A stretch of 35,177 bases of DNA, taken from positions 1-35,177 of IMG/VR virus record IMGVR_UViG_3300008262_005074; one strand, 5' to 3'. The translations under genes were made by a program, and so were the position numbers. The notes under the pieces were generated by a model. The model made no database searches. It was not told the DNA's origin and was given only the letters and a program-made list of their open reading frames with translations. Positions 28,579 through 34,233 of the stretch are shown piece after piece. Source of the stretch: a virus. Each line of letters opens with the position of its first letter. Position 1 is the first letter of the stretch.

Positions 28579-28610
28579 AAAAAAAAATCCACCCTAAGGT
28601 GGACTTTTTT
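28579..28610 (-). terminator. Strong intrinsic terminator after the UVR-motif gene
   Basis: TCCACC (28588-28593) pairs with GGTGGA (28598-28603) around the loop CTAA, flanked by an A run and a T run. On the minus strand it gives a GC-rich stem followed by nine T. It begins right at the stop codon of the gene at 28609-28980. Confidence 0.9.
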
Positions 28611-28980
28611 ATTTTAGAGCATTTATTTTGTCACGGTATTCTATCGCCTTTTCATAATCTTGTTTTTCAACACACTCACTTAGTTTTTTCTCTAACTCTG
28701 AAATCTTTTCTTTGTTCTTTTCTAATGTTTTAATTTTGTCTCGTAACTCAACCGCTTTTTCAAATTCTTGCTCCGCAACTGCTTTTTCTAAATCATTTTT
28801 TAAGATGTTTAACTCATCACTTTTTTGATTAGAATTAAATCCTTTACTCATATATGTAAAGGAATACTTCCCATCTGGCGATTTATATGTCCTTTTAGTC
28901 CAATTATTATCATTAAAGAAATCAGACTTGAAGGAGAACATGTTGTCAAACATTTTATCAAATTCATCCCAATTAATCAT
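28609..28980 (-). CDS. UVR-motif protein (McsA-like, possible Clp adaptor)
   Basis: A 123-residue protein with two UVR motifs in its C-terminal half: LEKAVAEQEFEKAVELRDKI (about residues 67-86) and LSECVEKQDYEKAIEYRDKI (about 101-120). Each has the (E/D)-x-(E/D)-(F/Y)-E-K-A-(I/V)-x-x-R-D-x-I core. UVR motifs occur in UvrB/UvrC, in McsA and in the middle domain of ClpC, where they mediate protein contacts. There are no CxxC zinc motifs of true McsA. It is divergently placed 171 nt from a ClpC-like gene that itself has such a motif, which makes an adaptor or regulator role for that unfoldase attractive but unproven. Confidence 0.72.
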   Translation of the reverse strand: MINWDEFDKMFDNMFSFKSDFFNDNNWTKRTYKSPDGKYSFTYMSKGFNSNQKSDELNILKNDLEKAVAEQEFEKAVELRDKIKTLEKNKEKISELEKKLSECVEKQDYEKAIEYRDKINALK

Positions 28981-29151: not shown

Positions 29152-30783
29152 ATGATAGACTCAGCAGACGGAACGGAAAAACCAAAAAACAAAACTCAAG
29201 AAGGACCAACAAAAACACCTGTTTTAGATAACTTTTCAAGGGATTTAATTAAGTTGGCTGAAGAAGGTAAACTTGACCCTGTAATTGGTAGAGATGATGA
29301 AATTAATAGAATTGCACAAATTCTTTCAAGACGTAAGAAAAATAATCCGATTATATTAGGCGAACCAGGTTGTGGTAAAACCGCAATTGTTGAAGGTTTG
29401 GCAAAAAAAATATTTGAGGGGGACTGCCCACAAAATTTGGCAAGTAAAAGAATTGTATCGTTAGATATGACATCTATAGTTGCAGGAACAAAATATCGTG
29501 GTCAGTTTGAAGAAAGGATGAAAGTTATTATTGAAGAACTATATGCCAATCCTGATATTATTATTTTTATCGATGAAATACATACAATGATTGGTGCAGG
29601 TAACGCCTCAGGATCTATGGACGCATCTAACATATTTAAACCAGCTCTTTCTCGTGGTGAGTTACAATGTATAGGAGCAACAACATTAGAAGAATACAGA
29701 AAAAATATTGAGAAGGATGGGGCATTAGAAAGAAGATTTCAAAAAGTGATCGTCGATCCGGCAACAAAAGAAGAGACATTACAAATTTTACAACAATCAA
29801 AAGATAGATATGAAAATCACCACAAAGTGTCGTATAGTGATGATATTTTAAAACTATGTGTTGAGTTAGCTGACAGATATATAACCGATCGTGAATTTCC
29901 AGATAAGGCTTTTGATATTATTGATGAGGTAGGTGCTCGTTCTCAAGTTGAAATAAAATTACCTGAAATTATTGAGGAACTTAAAAAACAAGCCCAATTA
30001 ATTAAAGAAGAAAAATTAGAAGTAATTAATAAACAAAAATATGAGGAGGCGGCAAATCTTAGAGATAAAGAAAGAAAAATATTATCAGATTTAGCAAAAG
30101 AAAAAGAAAACTTTGAGAAAAATCGTGACCAAAACAAAAGAGTTGTTACGGAAGATATCGTTTATGACGTTGTATCACTAATGACTAAAATTCCAATTAA
30201 TAAAATTACAACAGATGAAACCCAACAATTAATTACACTTAAAAATACTTTATCCACAAAAGTTATCGGTCAAGACGATGCTGTTGCAAAAATATCAAGA
30301 GCAATCCAAAGAAATAAAGTAGGTCTTAGTGACCCAAAAAAACCAATATTTAGTGGGTTATTAATTGGTAATTCAGGTGTAGGTAAAACTGAATTGGCTA
30401 AACAATTAGCCAAACATATGTTTAATAGTGAAGACTCACTTATTCGTTTAGATATGAGTGAATTCTCAGATAAAATCGCAACATCAAAACTTACGGGTAC
30501 CGCTCCAGGTTATGTTGGTTATGAAGATGGTTCACCATTCTTAAACAAGATTAAAAACAAACCTTATTCAGTTATCCTTTTGGATGAGATTGAGAAGGCA
30601 CATCCTGAAATATTTAATGTATTTTTACAGATGTTGGATGAAGGGTTTTTAACTGACGGTCACGGTAGAAAAATTAACTTTAAAAATTGTATTATCTTAA
30701 TGACCTCAAATGTTGGTACTCGAAAAAGTTTGCACCTGAATTTATTAATCGTTTTGATGATATTGTATATTTTAAAGATTTGA
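29152..30783 (+). CDS. ClpC/ClpA-like AAA+ unfoldase, main part (broken at C-terminal side)
   Basis: A 543-residue Hsp100 unfoldase that lacks the N-terminal Clp-N domain and starts close to the first AAA+ module. D1: GEPGCGKTAIVEGLA (Walker A, about residues 70-84), YRGQFEERMK pore region, IIIFIDEIHTMIGAG (Walker B, about 136-150) and ALERRFQ arginine finger. A middle segment holds the UVR-like KYEEAANLRDKERKI (about 297-311), as in ClpC. D2: IGNSGVGKTELAKQLA Walker A, GYVGYEDG pore loop and VILLDEIEKAHP Walker B. After MTSNVGTR the frame runs out into an unrelated tail. The family's next segment, which carries the ClpP-binding loop, is missing, and the remainder follows in the -1 frame. Confidence 0.85.
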   Translation: MIDSADGTEKPKNKTQEGPTKTPVLDNFSRDLIKLAEEGKLDPVIGRDDEINRIAQILSRRKKNNPIILGEPGCGKTAIVEGLAKKIFEGDCPQNLASKRIVSLDMTSIVAGTKYRGQFEERMKVIIEELYANPDIIIFIDEIHTMIGAGNASGSMDASNIFKPALSRGELQCIGATTLEEYRKNIEKDGALERRFQKVIVDPATKEETLQILQQSKDRYENHHKVSYSDDILKLCVELADRYITDREFPDKAFDIIDEVGARSQVEIKLPEIIEELKKQAQLIKEEKLEVINKQKYEEAANLRDKERKILSDLAKEKENFEKNRDQNKRVVTEDIVYDVVSLMTKIPINKITTDETQQLITLKNTLSTKVIGQDDAVAKISRAIQRNKVGLSDPKKPIFSGLLIGNSGVGKTELAKQLAKHMFNSEDSLIRLDMSEFSDKIATSKLTGTAPGYVGYEDGSPFLNKIKNKPYSVILLDEIEKAHPEIFNVFLQMLDEGFLTDGHGRKINFKNCIILMTSNVGTRKSLHLNLLIVLMILYILKI

Positions 30784-31088
30784 ATCAAGATGATTTGTTA
30801 AAGATTGTTGATTTAGAGCTTAATAAATTTTATGAAAGAATCAGTAAATTAGAATTCCAAGTTGAAGTTGATGATACTTTGAAAAAACATCTAATTGAAG
30901 TTGGTACAGATACTCGTTTTGGGGCTCGTATTCTAAAACGAACTGTCCAAAAATGGGTTGATGATGCTATTACAGAAAAGATTTTAACAGATAATCCCGA
31001 TAAAGGGTCGACGTTTATTTTAACGTATAATGAAAAAGATAAAAAAACTGACGTTAAAATAAAAAAACCCACAAAAAGAAAGAAATAA
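30687..31088 (+). CDS. ClpC/ClpA-like unfoldase, C-terminal part of D2
   Basis: A 133-residue ORF. Homology begins at KKFAPEFINRFDDIVYFKDL (from about 30723), the sensor-1/arginine-finger side of the Clp D2 module (F-x-P-E-F-x-N-R-x-D). It continues through the C-terminal small domain with TDTRFGARILKRTVQKWVDD (G-A-R-x-(L/M)-x-R-x(n)-(I/V)-x-x sensor-2 motif). The first residues upstream of KKFAPEF come from out-of-frame reading of the preceding gene, so this is a fragment and not an independent gene. A single -1 slip on the five-A run at about 30722-30726 would fuse both parts, but the fused protein would still lack about 30-35 family residues. Confidence 0.75.
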   Translation: MYYLNDLKCWYSKKFAPEFINRFDDIVYFKDLNQDDLLKIVDLELNKFYERISKLEFQVEVDDTLKKHLIEVGTDTRFGARILKRTVQKWVDDAITEKILTDNPDKGSTFILTYNEKDKKTDVKIKKPTKRKK

Positions 31089-31135: not shown

Positions 31136-32197
31136 ATGAATTTAGAAAAATTTAAAGAACTCCTTTCAGTCCCAACCAAAACATATCAAGAAGAAGATAT
31201 GGTGGAGTTTATTTGTAACGAGTTGGATGAGATGGAAGGAGTTACTTTCTATCGTGATGAAATGATGAATATATACGCAACAAAAGGCGTATTGGAAGAA
31301 GGAGAATATTACCCTATGTTTATCGCACATACAGATACGGTTCATAGTAAAATTGATAAGATTATCGTTAAAGAAGAAAAATTATCAAGACCGAATACTT
31401 TTGGTAAAACTTTTGACGACACTTTAGTTGATGTTTTAAAGGCGTACGATGAAAACGGTAACCCAACAGGTATTGGTGGTGATGACAAATGTGGTATTTT
31501 TATTTGTTTAGAATTACTTAAACAATTAGACAAAGTAAAAATTGGTTTATTTGTTTCAGAAGAAACAGGCTGTCATGGGTCATCAAAATGTGATGAATCA
31601 TTTTTAACTGATGTGGGTTATATTACACAATATGATGCGCCAGGTAATCACTTAATTACCGAGATTTGTTCGGGCGTTCGTTTATTTGAAAGAGATAGTG
31701 AATTTTTTGAAAAAACATCAAAGGTAATAACTGAGGCTTTTGGGAATGAAATGTTAGTTCAATCTCACCCTTATACTGATATCTCACAACTTAAAAAGAA
31801 AATTGATGTTTCTTGTATTAACATGTCTTGTGGATATTACAACATGCACTCAAATCAAGAATTTATTTCTATCGAAGATGTAAAAAATGCAATCGAGGCT
31901 GGAAAAAATATGGTTTTTGTATTAGGACTTAAAAAATATCAATACGAATACAAACCAATCGTATACACACCTAAAACAATCATGAATTCATTTGTAGAAG
32001 ATTTAGATGATGATGATGTGGATGTATTTGACTATCGAGATGATTCATTTCACCGATTGGATACAATTGATGTGTATGAAGAAAAAGATGGTATTACATT
32101 AAGTGATTCTTATGATGATGGTTTTTTATTTATTCCTGATGAAGACTTAATAAGTCTTTATGAAATTATTCAAGAAAGATTAATGAGTAAAAACTAA
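31136..32197 (+). CDS. M20-family peptidase (PepT-like)
   Basis: A 353-residue metallopeptidase. Zinc-site motifs in order: MFIAHTDTVHS (His65, Asp67), TGIGGDDKCGIFICLELL (Asp116/117, the G-(A/G)-D-D/N-(K/R)-x-G motif), and FVSEETGCHGS (Glu142 catalytic base and Glu143 ligand). A late NMHSNQEFISIEDV supplies the final His. This order is that of M20 peptidases such as peptidase T, which trim short peptides. About 70 extra C-terminal residues are acidic (DLDDDDVDVFDYRDD) and outside the catalytic core. The gene has its own host-type promoter and follows the Clp gene by 47 nt, so it may degrade peptides released by regulated proteolysis. Confidence 0.85.
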   Translation: MNLEKFKELLSVPTKTYQEEDMVEFICNELDEMEGVTFYRDEMMNIYATKGVLEEGEYYPMFIAHTDTVHSKIDKIIVKEEKLSRPNTFGKTFDDTLVDVLKAYDENGNPTGIGGDDKCGIFICLELLKQLDKVKIGLFVSEETGCHGSSKCDESFLTDVGYITQYDAPGNHLITEICSGVRLFERDSEFFEKTSKVITEAFGNEMLVQSHPYTDISQLKKKIDVSCINMSCGYYNMHSNQEFISIEDVKNAIEAGKNMVFVLGLKKYQYEYKPIVYTPKTIMNSFVEDLDDDDVDVFDYRDDSFHRLDTIDVYEEKDGITLSDSYDDGFLFIPDEDLISLYEIIQERLMSKN

Positions 32198-33354
32198 TTT
32201 CTATACGATAAAGGGTCAAATAACTGTGGACTATTCATAATATCAAATATTGATTCTATTGTGGTTACGCCATTTTTAACATACCAGTCTTTAGCGTTTT
32301 TAATTCTATAATTAACTTTCAAGGTTTCTTTATCGACATTTTGAATGTAAATTTCATAATTTGGCGTTGCAATTTTTTTCCATTTTCTAAATCCTATTTT
32401 ATCTGATATAATAGAAACAATTTTTAAATATTTAGAAAACTTACCTTTTGACTCACTTTCCATTTCATTTAATGAATCAAGTAATCTTTCAAGTGAGCTC
32501 AAAGATTCTCGGTCAAATACACGTTTAAATTCATCGTTATTCCAAGCATTATATTGAATCTCGTAATATTCAGGTGTGTGATTTTTAAATTCTTTTCTGA
32601 TTGCTTCAATCATCAAATCAAGTAAATTATCATCAGGTGAACCATGTCTTACAAATAACATAATAGCAGGTCCCCAAGATAATTCATATTTCCAAAAACA
32701 ATGTTTGGTAGAATAATTTTCGATACCTATTTCTTTTAACCCGTTACAGTAATGGTCTTCTATATATTGTGGGGCCTCAGATGAAACAGCAGCATAACTA
32801 CCATTAACAAATGCTGCTTGTAGGTCGTCTGCAATATTTGAGTCCATTACTTCTAAAACATCTGATATTTCAGAAAAATCTGCAGTTCTTTTAAGTTCTA
32901 CTGAACCATCTTCCCAAACATCAAAGTTTTTTAACAATTTAGGTTCGAATTTTTTAAGTATTTCATATAAAACTTTTGCAGACTCACCTTTCAATGCTTC
33001 AACAATATACCCTTCGGACCAATCATCACTTGCTCTATCCCAAAAATCCCATTCCCAAGTTCCACGATACATAGAATCTAAATAATCGGCCTCATAATAC
33101 CCGTCAGTTCCTTCATCACCATATTCTTCAGGAAAGAAAAATCTTAAAAACTCATCAAGACCATCAAATGTAAAATGAAGACCATCTTGTCTTACTTCAA
33201 TAATATTACCAAAATCTTCACCTTCAGAATTATAAAAATCAACCTCATAAGGATTGAGTTTTTTCTTATTAAGTGCAAGAATTTTTTGGTAGTCGGTTAA
33301 TTCTACATCATCATCATCTTCGTCTTGTTCAAAAATATCTAATATTTTTTGCAT
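32194..33354 (-). CDS. Acidic hypothetical protein
   Basis: A 386-residue acidic protein without a recognised domain. ATG 33354 (MQKILDIFEQDEDDDD) is preferred to an upstream ATG at 33426, because the longer reading would run through the tmRNA promoter region and TATTTAT lies 6 nt before 33354. The N-terminal half is rich in Asp, Glu, Tyr and Trp (YRGTWEWDFWDRASDDWSEG). The middle has a folded-looking segment (FWKYELSWGPAIMLFVRHGS) and the end YEIYIQNVDKETLKVNYRI. It is convergent with the peptidase gene, with overlapping stop codons. High acidity could mean a DNA-mimic or nucleic-acid-binding competitor, but that is speculation. Confidence 0.6.
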   Translation of the reverse strand: MQKILDIFEQDEDDDDVELTDYQKILALNKKKLNPYEVDFYNSEGEDFGNIIEVRQDGLHFTFDGLDEFLRFFFPEEYGDEGTDGYYEADYLDSMYRGTWEWDFWDRASDDWSEGYIVEALKGESAKVLYEILKKFEPKLLKNFDVWEDGSVELKRTADFSEISDVLEVMDSNIADDLQAAFVNGSYAAVSSEAPQYIEDHYCNGLKEIGIENYSTKHCFWKYELSWGPAIMLFVRHGSPDDNLLDLMIEAIRKEFKNHTPEYYEIQYNAWNNDEFKRVFDRESLSSLERLLDSLNEMESESKGKFSKYLKIVSIISDKIGFRKWKKIATPNYEIYIQNVDKETLKVNYRIKNAKDWYVKNGVTTIESIFDIMNSPQLFDPLSYRN

Positions 33355-33360
33355 ATATTT

Positions 33361-33367
33361 ATAAATA
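33361..33367 (-). promoter_or_regulatory. TATTTAT motif, 6 nt before ATG 33354
   Basis: Minus-sense TATTTATAAATAT directly followed by ATG. Only a few bases separate it from the -33 box of the plus-strand tmRNA promoter, so the two transcripts start back to back. Confidence 0.45.
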
Positions 33368-33368
33368 T

Positions 33369-33400
33369 ATTGAAAGGGTAAAAGAAAATACTTATCTTTG
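33369..33400 (+). promoter_or_regulatory. Host-type promoter for the tmRNA gene
   Basis: ATTG at 33369-33372 and TATCTTTG at 33393-33400, with 20 nt between them, match the Bacteroidota -33/-7 pattern. The mature tmRNA 5' end is 38 nt downstream, leaving a short leader to be removed. The word TTATCTTTGTTATATA here is repeated exactly at 35109-35124. Confidence 0.7.
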
Positions 33401-33437
33401 TTATATAGTTCTTTGAAAATAGTCATTTAAGATATAT

Positions 33438-33827
33438 GGGCCTATATCGGAATTGACGGGCGTTGGTTGAACAAATAGGAGCACGTAGGGACTGAATTAA
33501 TCTCTTTAAAAACTGATTCACATTATATACGGCAACGTACTTGATAACCTTTCAGTGGTTGGTTTAATTGCAACTGAGCAAGTTACTGTAGCTTAAGTAA
33601 AGCACGGAAACGGGGGGTCGGCAGACATATAACCTAGCAACAGAAGTCGTAGTATGTGGTGGATTACTATTGAACCCAAAATCGAATAGTAACCATTGGT
33701 TGTTGATTTACGATGGTGAAGAACAAATCAACTATTTTGGAACATTAGAAAATGTTAACCTAAACGTGTAGTTGTCTTTTGGACAAAACGAGCCGGACGT
33801 GGGAGTCGGAGCCCACTAGGTCCACCA
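33438..33827 (+). ncRNA. ssrA: tmRNA (trans-translation RNA)
   Basis: A 390-nt RNA gene with all main tmRNA marks. GGGCCTA (33438-33444) pairs with TAGGTCC (33817-33823) as a 7-bp acceptor stem, followed by A and an encoded CCA (33825-33827). The conserved 5' box GGAATTGACGGG (33449-33460) matches the tmRNA D-domain. CGTGTAG near 33765 matches the 3' P2 strand, and GTGGG/CCCAC forms the T stem. The tag frame ends at TAA 33594-33596. With GCA 33570 as resume codon the tag is ATEQVTVA; from GGC 33531 it would be 21 residues. The tag ends TVA instead of the LAA of most bacteria. It rescues stalled ribosomes and marks the product for proteolysis. Circular permutation is not seen. Confidence 0.88.
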
Positions 33828-33828
33828 A

Positions 33829-34233
33829 TTAGAGGGAGAAGAATTCATTAATGAACTTCTCCCTTATTTTTATCATATCTTCAGTATATTTACCATTTCT
33901 TGGTGTTACTTTTTTATAATCGTTAAGAACAAGATTTATTTTTTTACTTTTTTTGTAATGTTTGGAATTGATGTTTTCAACAACCAATAACCCTAAATTA
34001 TATCTATAAATTAAATTATAACAAGTTGAGTGGTGTTCTTCCTTTGATGTTCGTTTGGTTATAGTCCCTTTACCTGAAATTTGATTGTCTATAAATTCTT
34101 TTATATCCTCAAGTAATTTCAAATCTATGTTTGTAAACCCGACACAAATAGTTTTATTTTTACCTTTATTCATTGCAGATAATGTAATATGTCCATCCGC
34201 ATCAAAAAATCCTGATATATATTCCCAATTCAT
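33829..34233 (-). CDS. LAGLIDADG homing endonuclease
   Basis: A 134-residue protein beginning MNWEYISGFFDADGHITLS. The motif ISGFFDADG (about residues 6-14) is one LAGLIDADG helix with its catalytic Asp. It is followed by a basic strand region (IDNQISGKGTITKRTSKEEH) and a Lys/Tyr-rich C-terminal part, typical of single-motif enzymes that act as homodimers. The gene is free-standing, not within an intron or intein. Its stop codon lies 1 nt from the CCA end of the convergent tmRNA. TATTTAT occurs 14 nt upstream of its ATG. It probably cuts a related site in co-infecting phage or host DNA and spreads by repair. Confidence 0.88.
   Translation of the reverse strand: MNWEYISGFFDADGHITLSAMNKGKNKTICVGFTNIDLKLLEDIKEFIDNQISGKGTITKRTSKEEHHSTCYNLIYRYNLGLLVVENINSKHYKKSKKINLVLNDYKKVTPRNGKYTEDMIKIREKFINEFFSL

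What the first reader, a model, noticed from the sequence alone, without database searches (positions are those of the whole stretch)
33438..33827. Phage-encoded tmRNA with a non-standard proteolysis tag
The acceptor stem, encoded CCA, the GGAATTGACGGG box and T stem are all visible, so a functional tmRNA is likely. The tag frame ends QVTVA, not (A)LAA. In bacteria the last residues of the tag are what ClpX and the SspB/ClpA systems recognise. A tag ending TVA might avoid host ClpXP, might suit another protease, or might simply be tolerated. A phage tmRNA could keep ribosomes free when phage nucleases or fast mRNA turnover create broken messages.
Basis: partly seen in the sequence, partly recalled or inferred. 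Interest (0 to 1): 0.85.

Follow-up and report, generated by a model that had tools for sequence, protein, structure and literature searches.

The report
Jumbo-phage tmRNA with conserved private tag
A large, uncultivated freshwater phage lineage carries its own ribosome-rescue RNA that labels unfinished proteins with a conserved 21-residue tag unlike its likely hosts' tag, next to a phage gene for a protein-unfolding machine, which suggests, but does not prove, that the phage runs its own rescue-and-disposal route.

Summary
The tmRNA at 33438-33827 is real: Rfam RF00023, 62.6 bits, E 2e-22. ARAGORN misses it.

It is no isolated oddity. Scans of IMG/VR found relatives in more than 100 phage contigs, up to about 300 kb. 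Every complete tag but one truncated deletion variant follows G[ND]VL..[NK][LM]...GL..., ending V-x-V-[AS] (mostly VTVA). The tag family was not found in GTDB bacteria or GenBank phages. Bacteroidota tmRNAs encode mostly 9-10-residue ALAA tags. Seventy-three distinct genes keep every acceptor and T-stem pair and G3.U70.

Most likely it is a working phage tmRNA whose tag is selected, plausibly as a degron for the phage ClpC working with host ClpP. That link is inference. "Avoids host ClpXP" is untested and not implied by a VA ending. New variant of a known kind.

The parts
33438..33827 (+). tmRNA gene (one-piece)
   Evidence: Rfam RF00023 62.6 bits, E 2.4e-22; family alignment
33438..33444 (+). 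acceptor stem 5' strand GGGCCTA, pairs with 33817-33823, G3.U70
   Evidence: 100% paired in 73 distinct genes
33487..33520 (+). pseudoknot 1: AGGGA/TCTCT and TGAAT/ATTCA
   Evidence: 94.4% cells paired, covariation above all shuffles
33531..33596 (+). tag frame GNVLDNLSVVGLIATEQVTVA + TAA
   Evidence: A at -4, conserved frame
33799..33816 (+). T arm GTGGG-AGTCGGAG-CCCAC with non-canonical 8-nt loop
   Evidence: same loop in 21 of 73 distinct genes and 36 contigs by 3'-end pattern
33817..33827 (+). acceptor 3' strand, A73 and encoded CCA
33393..33400 (+). TATCTTTG, fits Bacteroidetes -7 TAnnTTTG
   Evidence: sequence; similar motif upstream of relatives; consensus from own knowledge
33408..33416 (+). 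boxA-like GTTCTTTGA
   Evidence: conserved upstream of relatives; boxA reading is inference
33829..34233 (-). LAGLIDADG endonuclease-like ORF abutting the tmRNA 3' end
   Evidence: Pfam PF14528 E 4e-8
29152..31088 (+). ClpC-like AAA+ unfoldase, no N domain; broken in this contig by a ~105-nt deletion near 30710
   Evidence: Pfam, alignment, linkage
31136..32197 (+). M42/M20-like peptidase, conserved neighbour
   Evidence: Pfam PF05343 E 1e-6; PHROG peptidase
32194..33426 (-). conserved 410-aa protein of unknown function
28609..28980 (-). UVR-motif protein, upstream of clpC on the other strand
   Evidence: Pfam PF02151 E 9e-20

Best explanation
A working one-piece tmRNA of a large T4-like, probably Bacteroidota-infecting phage lineage. 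It is charged with alanine, uses (usually host) SmpB, rescues ribosomes stalled on cut messages during infection, and adds Ala plus a 21-residue phage-specific tag. The tag is under selection at both ends (G-N/D-V-L start, central G-L, V-T-V-A end). Most likely it is a degron delivered to the phage's own N-domain-less ClpC-like unfoldase, which keeps the ClpP-docking loop and would work with host ClpP. Shown: the gene, its structure, the frame, the conservation, the linkage to clpC. Inferred: expression, SmpB use, degradation, the ClpC-tag pairing. My odds: functional tmRNA 0.93; tag selected as a peptide 0.75; tag read by phage ClpC 0.4.
For: Covariance-model hit. Acceptor and T stems perfect and covarying in 73 distinct genes, G3.U70 invariant. 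PK1 covaries. Frame determinants in place. The tag family is in every contig found by two unrelated DNA patterns where the tag is complete, apart from one deletion variant, with pN/pS 0.11 and 0.13 at its ends. The distant relative L075 keeps GNVL, GLI and the ending VVA although the rest of its RNA is rewritten. clpC upstream on the same strand in 110/110 loci, and present in all 24 records found by tmRNA pattern alone. Phage ClpC keeps both Walker A/B sets, KYRG and GYVG pore loops and the GVGF ClpP loop. One 296-kb member also encodes SmpB and ClpP. Three other large-phage tmRNAs examined also have non-LAA tags.
Against: No expression or protein data. SmpB and ClpP were found in only 1 of 22 large records (which may be fragments), so the system would depend on host parts. 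Clp linkage may be simple gene-order conservation. Codons 19-20 of the tag show almost no synonymous change (ACT 33/33, GTA 35/36), so peptide-level and RNA-level constraint on the end are not cleanly separable. The window's own clpC is broken by a deletion. The unusual T-loop could weaken charging or SmpB/EF-Tu contacts.
Confidence: 0.5

Rival explanations
1. Ribosome rescue only: the phage needs stalled ribosomes freed; any tag will do and the host degrades tagged proteins as usual.
For: Rescue is the conserved core of tmRNA function; the middle of the tag is free to change (pN/pS 0.68); variant -VA/-AV ends still work as degradation tags in E. coli (PMC9382460).
Against: Both ends of the tag are conserved over the whole family and are unlike the host tag.
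Confidence: 0.25
2. Escape tag: the VTVA end hides tagged chains from host ClpXP so that truncated phage proteins stay usable or do not load the host protease.
For: The tag departs from ALAA; three other large-phage tmRNAs examined also depart from LAA.
Against: A VA end is not a known stabiliser (PMC9382460); no test here.
Confidence: 0.15
3. Decoy: the RNA titrates host SmpB, as suggested for the tRNA-like-domain-only tmRNA of mycobacteriophage DS6A.
For: Precedent DS6A (PMC4131195); altered T-loop.
Against: Full tag frame, PK1 and resume signals are conserved, which a decoy does not need.
Confidence: 0.05
4. Dead remnant: a tmRNA fragment acquired by recombination at the ssrA insertion site.
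For: tmRNA genes are common insertion sites; one contig (G012) has a duplicated 3' end.
Against: Complete covarying gene in more than 100 contigs.
Confidence: 0.02

Closest known systems
Bacteroidota tmRNA (one-piece, RF00023)
   Same: Same fold, GGC resume codon, A at -4 of the resume codon, G3.U70, one-piece form
   Different: Host tags mostly 9-10 residues ending ALAA (GENNYALAA, GNNEYALAA); phage tag 21 residues ending VxVA; window T-loop AGUCGGAG; lower model score (62.6 against 119-181 bits)
tmRNA of mycobacteriophage Bxz1 group (ErnieJ) and of Bacillus phage G
   Same: Phage-encoded complete tmRNA with a tag not ending LAA: ATDTDATVTDAEIEAFFAEEAAALV and AKLNITNNELQVA
   Different: Unrelated tags, canonical enough for ARAGORN, set in tRNA clusters; no clpC link tested there
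tmRNA of Pelagibacter/OM43 myophages (Melnitz)
   Same: T4-like aquatic phage tmRNA; authors suggest maintenance of translation or tagging of host proteins (PMC9004378)
   Different: Two-piece permuted form under a glutamine riboswitch
tmRNA, SmpB and translation genes in huge phages (Al-Shayeb 2020)
   Same: Huge phages known to carry tmRNA and SmpB (PMC7162821); the nearest GenBank phages by ClpC include such metagenomic huge-phage genomes
   Different: That survey called tmRNA with ARAGORN, which recovers 16 of 82 genes of this family and the right tag in 2; LR756508 has a different, probably 36-residue tag
Group I introns in the tmRNA T-loop
   Same: Same site class (T-loop position 3, so far Bacteroidia) in related phages here (PMC11915505)
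   Different: Phage genes with an HNH-like ORF outside the intron; window gene has no intron but an altered T-loop at that site
Bacterial ClpC
   Same: D1, UVR-type middle domain, D2, pore loops, GVGF ClpP loop
   Different: N domain absent; about 57% identity to closest Bacteroidota ClpC

Membership tests
tmRNA (RF00023) | Covariance-model score above the curated cut-off over the full model | tested here: met
   62.6 bits against 47, positions 1-374
tmRNA (RF00023) | Alanine-type acceptor stem with G3.U70 and CCA | tested here: met
   Sequence; invariant G.U in 73 genes
tmRNA (RF00023) | T arm with canonical 7-nt UUCRANN loop | tested here: not met
   Stem conserved, but the loop is AGUCRGAG (8 nt) in the window and 20 other distinct genes; other members of the same phage family keep UUCGANN. 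A usual feature rather than the defining one: the model score passes without it
tmRNA (RF00023) | Resume codon with A at -4 and an open tag frame ending in a stop | tested here: met
   UAUAC-GGC; 21-codon frame; conserved in more than 100 contigs
tmRNA (RF00023) | Pseudoknot 1 upstream of the resume codon | tested here: met
   94.4% of cells paired, compensatory changes
tmRNA (RF00023) | Charging with alanine, SmpB binding and tagging | not testable with these tools
   Needs biochemistry
LAA-type ssrA degron | Tag ends in (A)LAA | tested here: not met
   All complete phage tags end VxV[AS] or, in L075, VVA
Intron-form tmRNA gene | Group I intron in the T-loop | tested here: not met
   None in the window; present in L071, L122, L134, L169, L176 and L188
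ClpC (for the linked gene) | Two AAA+ modules and a ClpP-docking loop | tested here: met
   Met in relatives; in the window copy the loop lies in a deletion
ClpC (for the linked gene) | N-terminal adaptor/substrate domain | tested here: not met
   Absent in the phage proteins aligned

The most novel reading that the evidence does not exclude
This phage lineage has a private trans-translation and proteolysis route: its tmRNA writes a phage-specific 21-residue degron (GNVL...GL...VTVA) that is read by the phage's own N-domain-less ClpC with ClpP, separating phage protein waste from host ClpXP/ClpCP. In at least one member SmpB and ClpP are phage-encoded too.
Probability: 0.33. Interest if true: 0.82.

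Novelty: new variant of a known kind. Interest (0 to 1): 0.63.

Why it matters
Phage tmRNAs are known, but why phages carry them is open. Here is a large family, mostly missed by the standard finder (16 of 82 genes recovered), in which the tag is a conserved, host-unlike peptide and the gene sits near a phage Clp unfoldase. The question 'does a phage redirect tagged proteins to its own protease?' becomes a simple reporter experiment. The altered T-loop at a site where sister phages carry group I introns also offers a test of whether homing elements can reshape a conserved tRNA-like loop.

Tried and rejected
Nucleotide search of GenBank phages with the window tmRNA or a canonical-T-loop relative, and tblastn with the tag: no match. 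Conserved RNA segment in GTDB genomes: no match. Relatives of the 410-aa neighbour by single-protein scan: none, although tblastn in the loci later found many. Sequencing error as the cause of the odd T-loop: rejected, the same loop is in 36 contigs by an independent 3'-end pattern with a covarying stem. An alternative tag frame (GCA start, ATYLITFQWLV): rejected because A is not at -4 and the GGC frame is the conserved one. Phage tRNAs sharing the AGUC T-loop: none in the loci held. Fold of the 410-aa neighbour: confident model but no PDB match, so no functional clue. Comparator accessions for Bxz1 and Wildcat themselves were not held; Bxz1-group phages were used instead.

Full report
OBSERVATION. 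Rfam RF00023 matches 33438-33827 (+) over the whole model at 62.6 bits, E 2.4e-22, the only RNA family in the window. ARAGORN finds nothing. The acceptor stem GGGCCUA/UAGGUCC pairs fully with G3.U70, the T stem is GUGGG/CCCAC, and CCA is encoded. The resume codon is GGC at 33531, with A at -4 and U at -5, the determinants shown in E. coli (A86, U85; PMC2481249). The 21-codon frame reads GNVLDNLSVVGLIATEQVTVA and stops at 33594.

The T-loop is AGUCGGAG, eight bases, in place of UUCRANN. This is not an error: the same AGUCRGAG loop occurs in 21 of 73 distinct tmRNA genes tabulated, on several acceptor and T-stem versions that remain fully paired, and a separate scan with a 3'-end pattern found 36 contigs. 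Sister phages with the same tags keep UUCGANN, so tag and T-loop are exchanged independently.

THE FAMILY. The ClpC-like gene at 29152-31088 gave 80 close IMG/VR loci; 34 of 50 of these records carry a tmRNA above the Rfam cut-off. A scan with the PK1 segment gave more than 115 loci and none in one genome each of 84,980 bacterial and archaeal species. Every complete tag but one truncated deletion variant (L116/L098) has 21 residues and fits G[ND]VL.[NK][LM]...GL[ILV]...[EQD]V[TAS]V[AS]; of 84 distinct genes, 74 end TVA, 5 SVA, 4 TVS, 1 AVA. A scan that did not use the PK1 pattern gave the same tags. The more distant L075 encodes GNVLDKMAAIGLIREDAAVVA. Fifteen Bacteroidota-related cellular tmRNAs whose tag I could parse encode mostly GENNYALAA-like tags, 14 ending ALAA and one AMAA. 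Contigs are not independent samples; counts show spread, not events.

IS IT FUNCTIONAL. In 73 distinct genes all seven acceptor pairs and all five T-stem pairs form, with several pair types at acceptor positions 4-7 and most T-stem positions, and G3.U70 invariant. PK1 pairs in 94.4% of cells with a covariation score above all shuffles and slides; the independent set adds GGGT/ACTC and TAAGT/ACTTA versions. A TAnnTTTG motif (the Bacteroidetes -7 element, own knowledge) and a boxA-like GTTCTTTGA precede the gene, here at 33393-33400 and 33408-33416 and in similar form in relatives. CCA is encoded in 51 of 73. These are the marks of a working stable RNA; expression itself was not testable.

IS THE TAG SELECTED AS A PEPTIDE. 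Over 36 distinct tag sequences, pN/pS is 0.11 for codons 1-4, 0.68 for 5-17 and 0.13 for 18-21. The start and the end are held while the middle drifts. Codons 19-20 show few synonymous changes, so an RNA-level share cannot be excluded for the last residues; the retention of the VVA end in the very different L075 RNA argues for the peptide.

NEIGHBOURS AND MECHANISM. In 110 of 110 loci where both are seen, clpC lies 2.5-6 kb upstream of the tmRNA on the same strand; a UVR-motif protein (52 rows), a M42/M20-like peptidase (166 rows) and a 410-aa protein (135 rows) share the neighbourhood (rows include overlapping loci of one contig). All 24 records found by the tmRNA pattern alone also have clpC. 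The phage ClpC lacks the N domain but keeps Walker motifs, KYRG and GYVG pore loops and the GVGF ClpP loop, and its nearest cellular relatives are Bacteroidota. In the window the loop lies in a ~105-nt out-of-frame deletion, real or an assembly fault. SmpB and ClpP occur in one of 22 large records, a 296-kb contig with the same tmRNA. The best model is therefore: phage tmRNA, usually host SmpB, phage tag, and phage ClpC on host ClpP for disposal. Only gene content, structure and conservation are shown; the tag-to-ClpC step is inferred from linkage. The idea that TVA escapes host ClpXP is not supported: engineered LVA and AAV ends are used as degradation tags in E. coli (PMC9382460).

T-LOOP AND HOMING ELEMENTS. 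Six related genes carry a group I intron between the second and third T-loop bases (UU^CGA), confirmed by Rfam RF00028 in the four loci scanned at 86-95 bits. The five of them classified for neighbours all have an HNH-like ORF directly downstream; this ORF was recognised by eye, as Pfam gave no significant match. Introns at this T-loop position are known from Bacteroidia (PMC11915505; that position 3 is this site is my reading of their numbering). Among intron-free genes, a homing-endonuclease ORF follows 6 of 20 AGUC-type but 2 of 45 UUC-type genes (Fisher p 0.008, ignoring relatedness), and in the window a LAGLIDADG ORF ends within 2 nt of the tmRNA 3' end. A reasonable reading is that the AGUC loop is an intron- and cleavage-resistant allele; the numbers are small and this is a suggestion.

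KNOWN OR NEW. Phage tmRNAs are known (2.3% of genomes in one survey, PMC9004378; huge phages, PMC7162821), and other phage tags also lack LAA. New here, as far as the searches show, are the size and coherence of this family, the conserved 21-residue tag, the T-loop, and the ClpC linkage. ARAGORN recovers 16 of 82 distinct genes and the right tag in two, so surveys based on it would have missed most of them.

Noticed in passing
L071 14191-14900, L122, L134, L169, L176, L188: Group I introns in the T-loop of related phage tmRNA genes, with an HNH-like ORF just downstream.
   Followed up: partly
records G042, G045, G046, G051, G096: ClpC interrupted at Walker A (GEPGC|GKT) by an intein-like sequence starting CVLGDTW; in G042, G045 and G046 the halves lie in separate ORFs with a 24-28-residue N part, resembling an atypical split intein.
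   Followed up: partly
23 of 35 records, e.g. L346 7667-8075, L134 2509-2918: GOLLD giant RNA (RF02032) in the same phages; in the second ClpC clade it lies about 0.2-8 kb downstream of the tmRNA and on the opposite strand.
   Followed up: partly
L346 2233-2643 and G051:C1:68265-68786: A 296-kb phage contig with the same tmRNA family also encodes a full-length SmpB and a ClpP.
   Followed up: partly
L348 (G012:C1:1529-1831): Second copy of the tmRNA 3' end about 0.6 kb behind the intact gene, flanking one small ORF, like an insertion-site duplication.
   Followed up: no
L116/L098: A 213-nt tmRNA variant with a ~200-nt deletion and a tag cut to GNVLDNLSVVGLN; deletion or assembly fault.
   Followed up: no
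window 30690-30760: About 105 nt deleted out of frame in this contig's clpC, removing the GVGF ClpP-docking loop.
   Followed up: partly
LR756508.1 92434-92880 (L344): 484-kb huge phage tmRNA with a probable 36-residue tag GVNNADYESAGFTAEDFAQMDGESLYHGSERKPAAV, read differently by ARAGORN.
   Followed up: partly
window 32194-33426: Conserved 410-aa neighbour with a confident AlphaFold2 model (pLDDT 88) and no similar fold in the PDB.
   Followed up: partly
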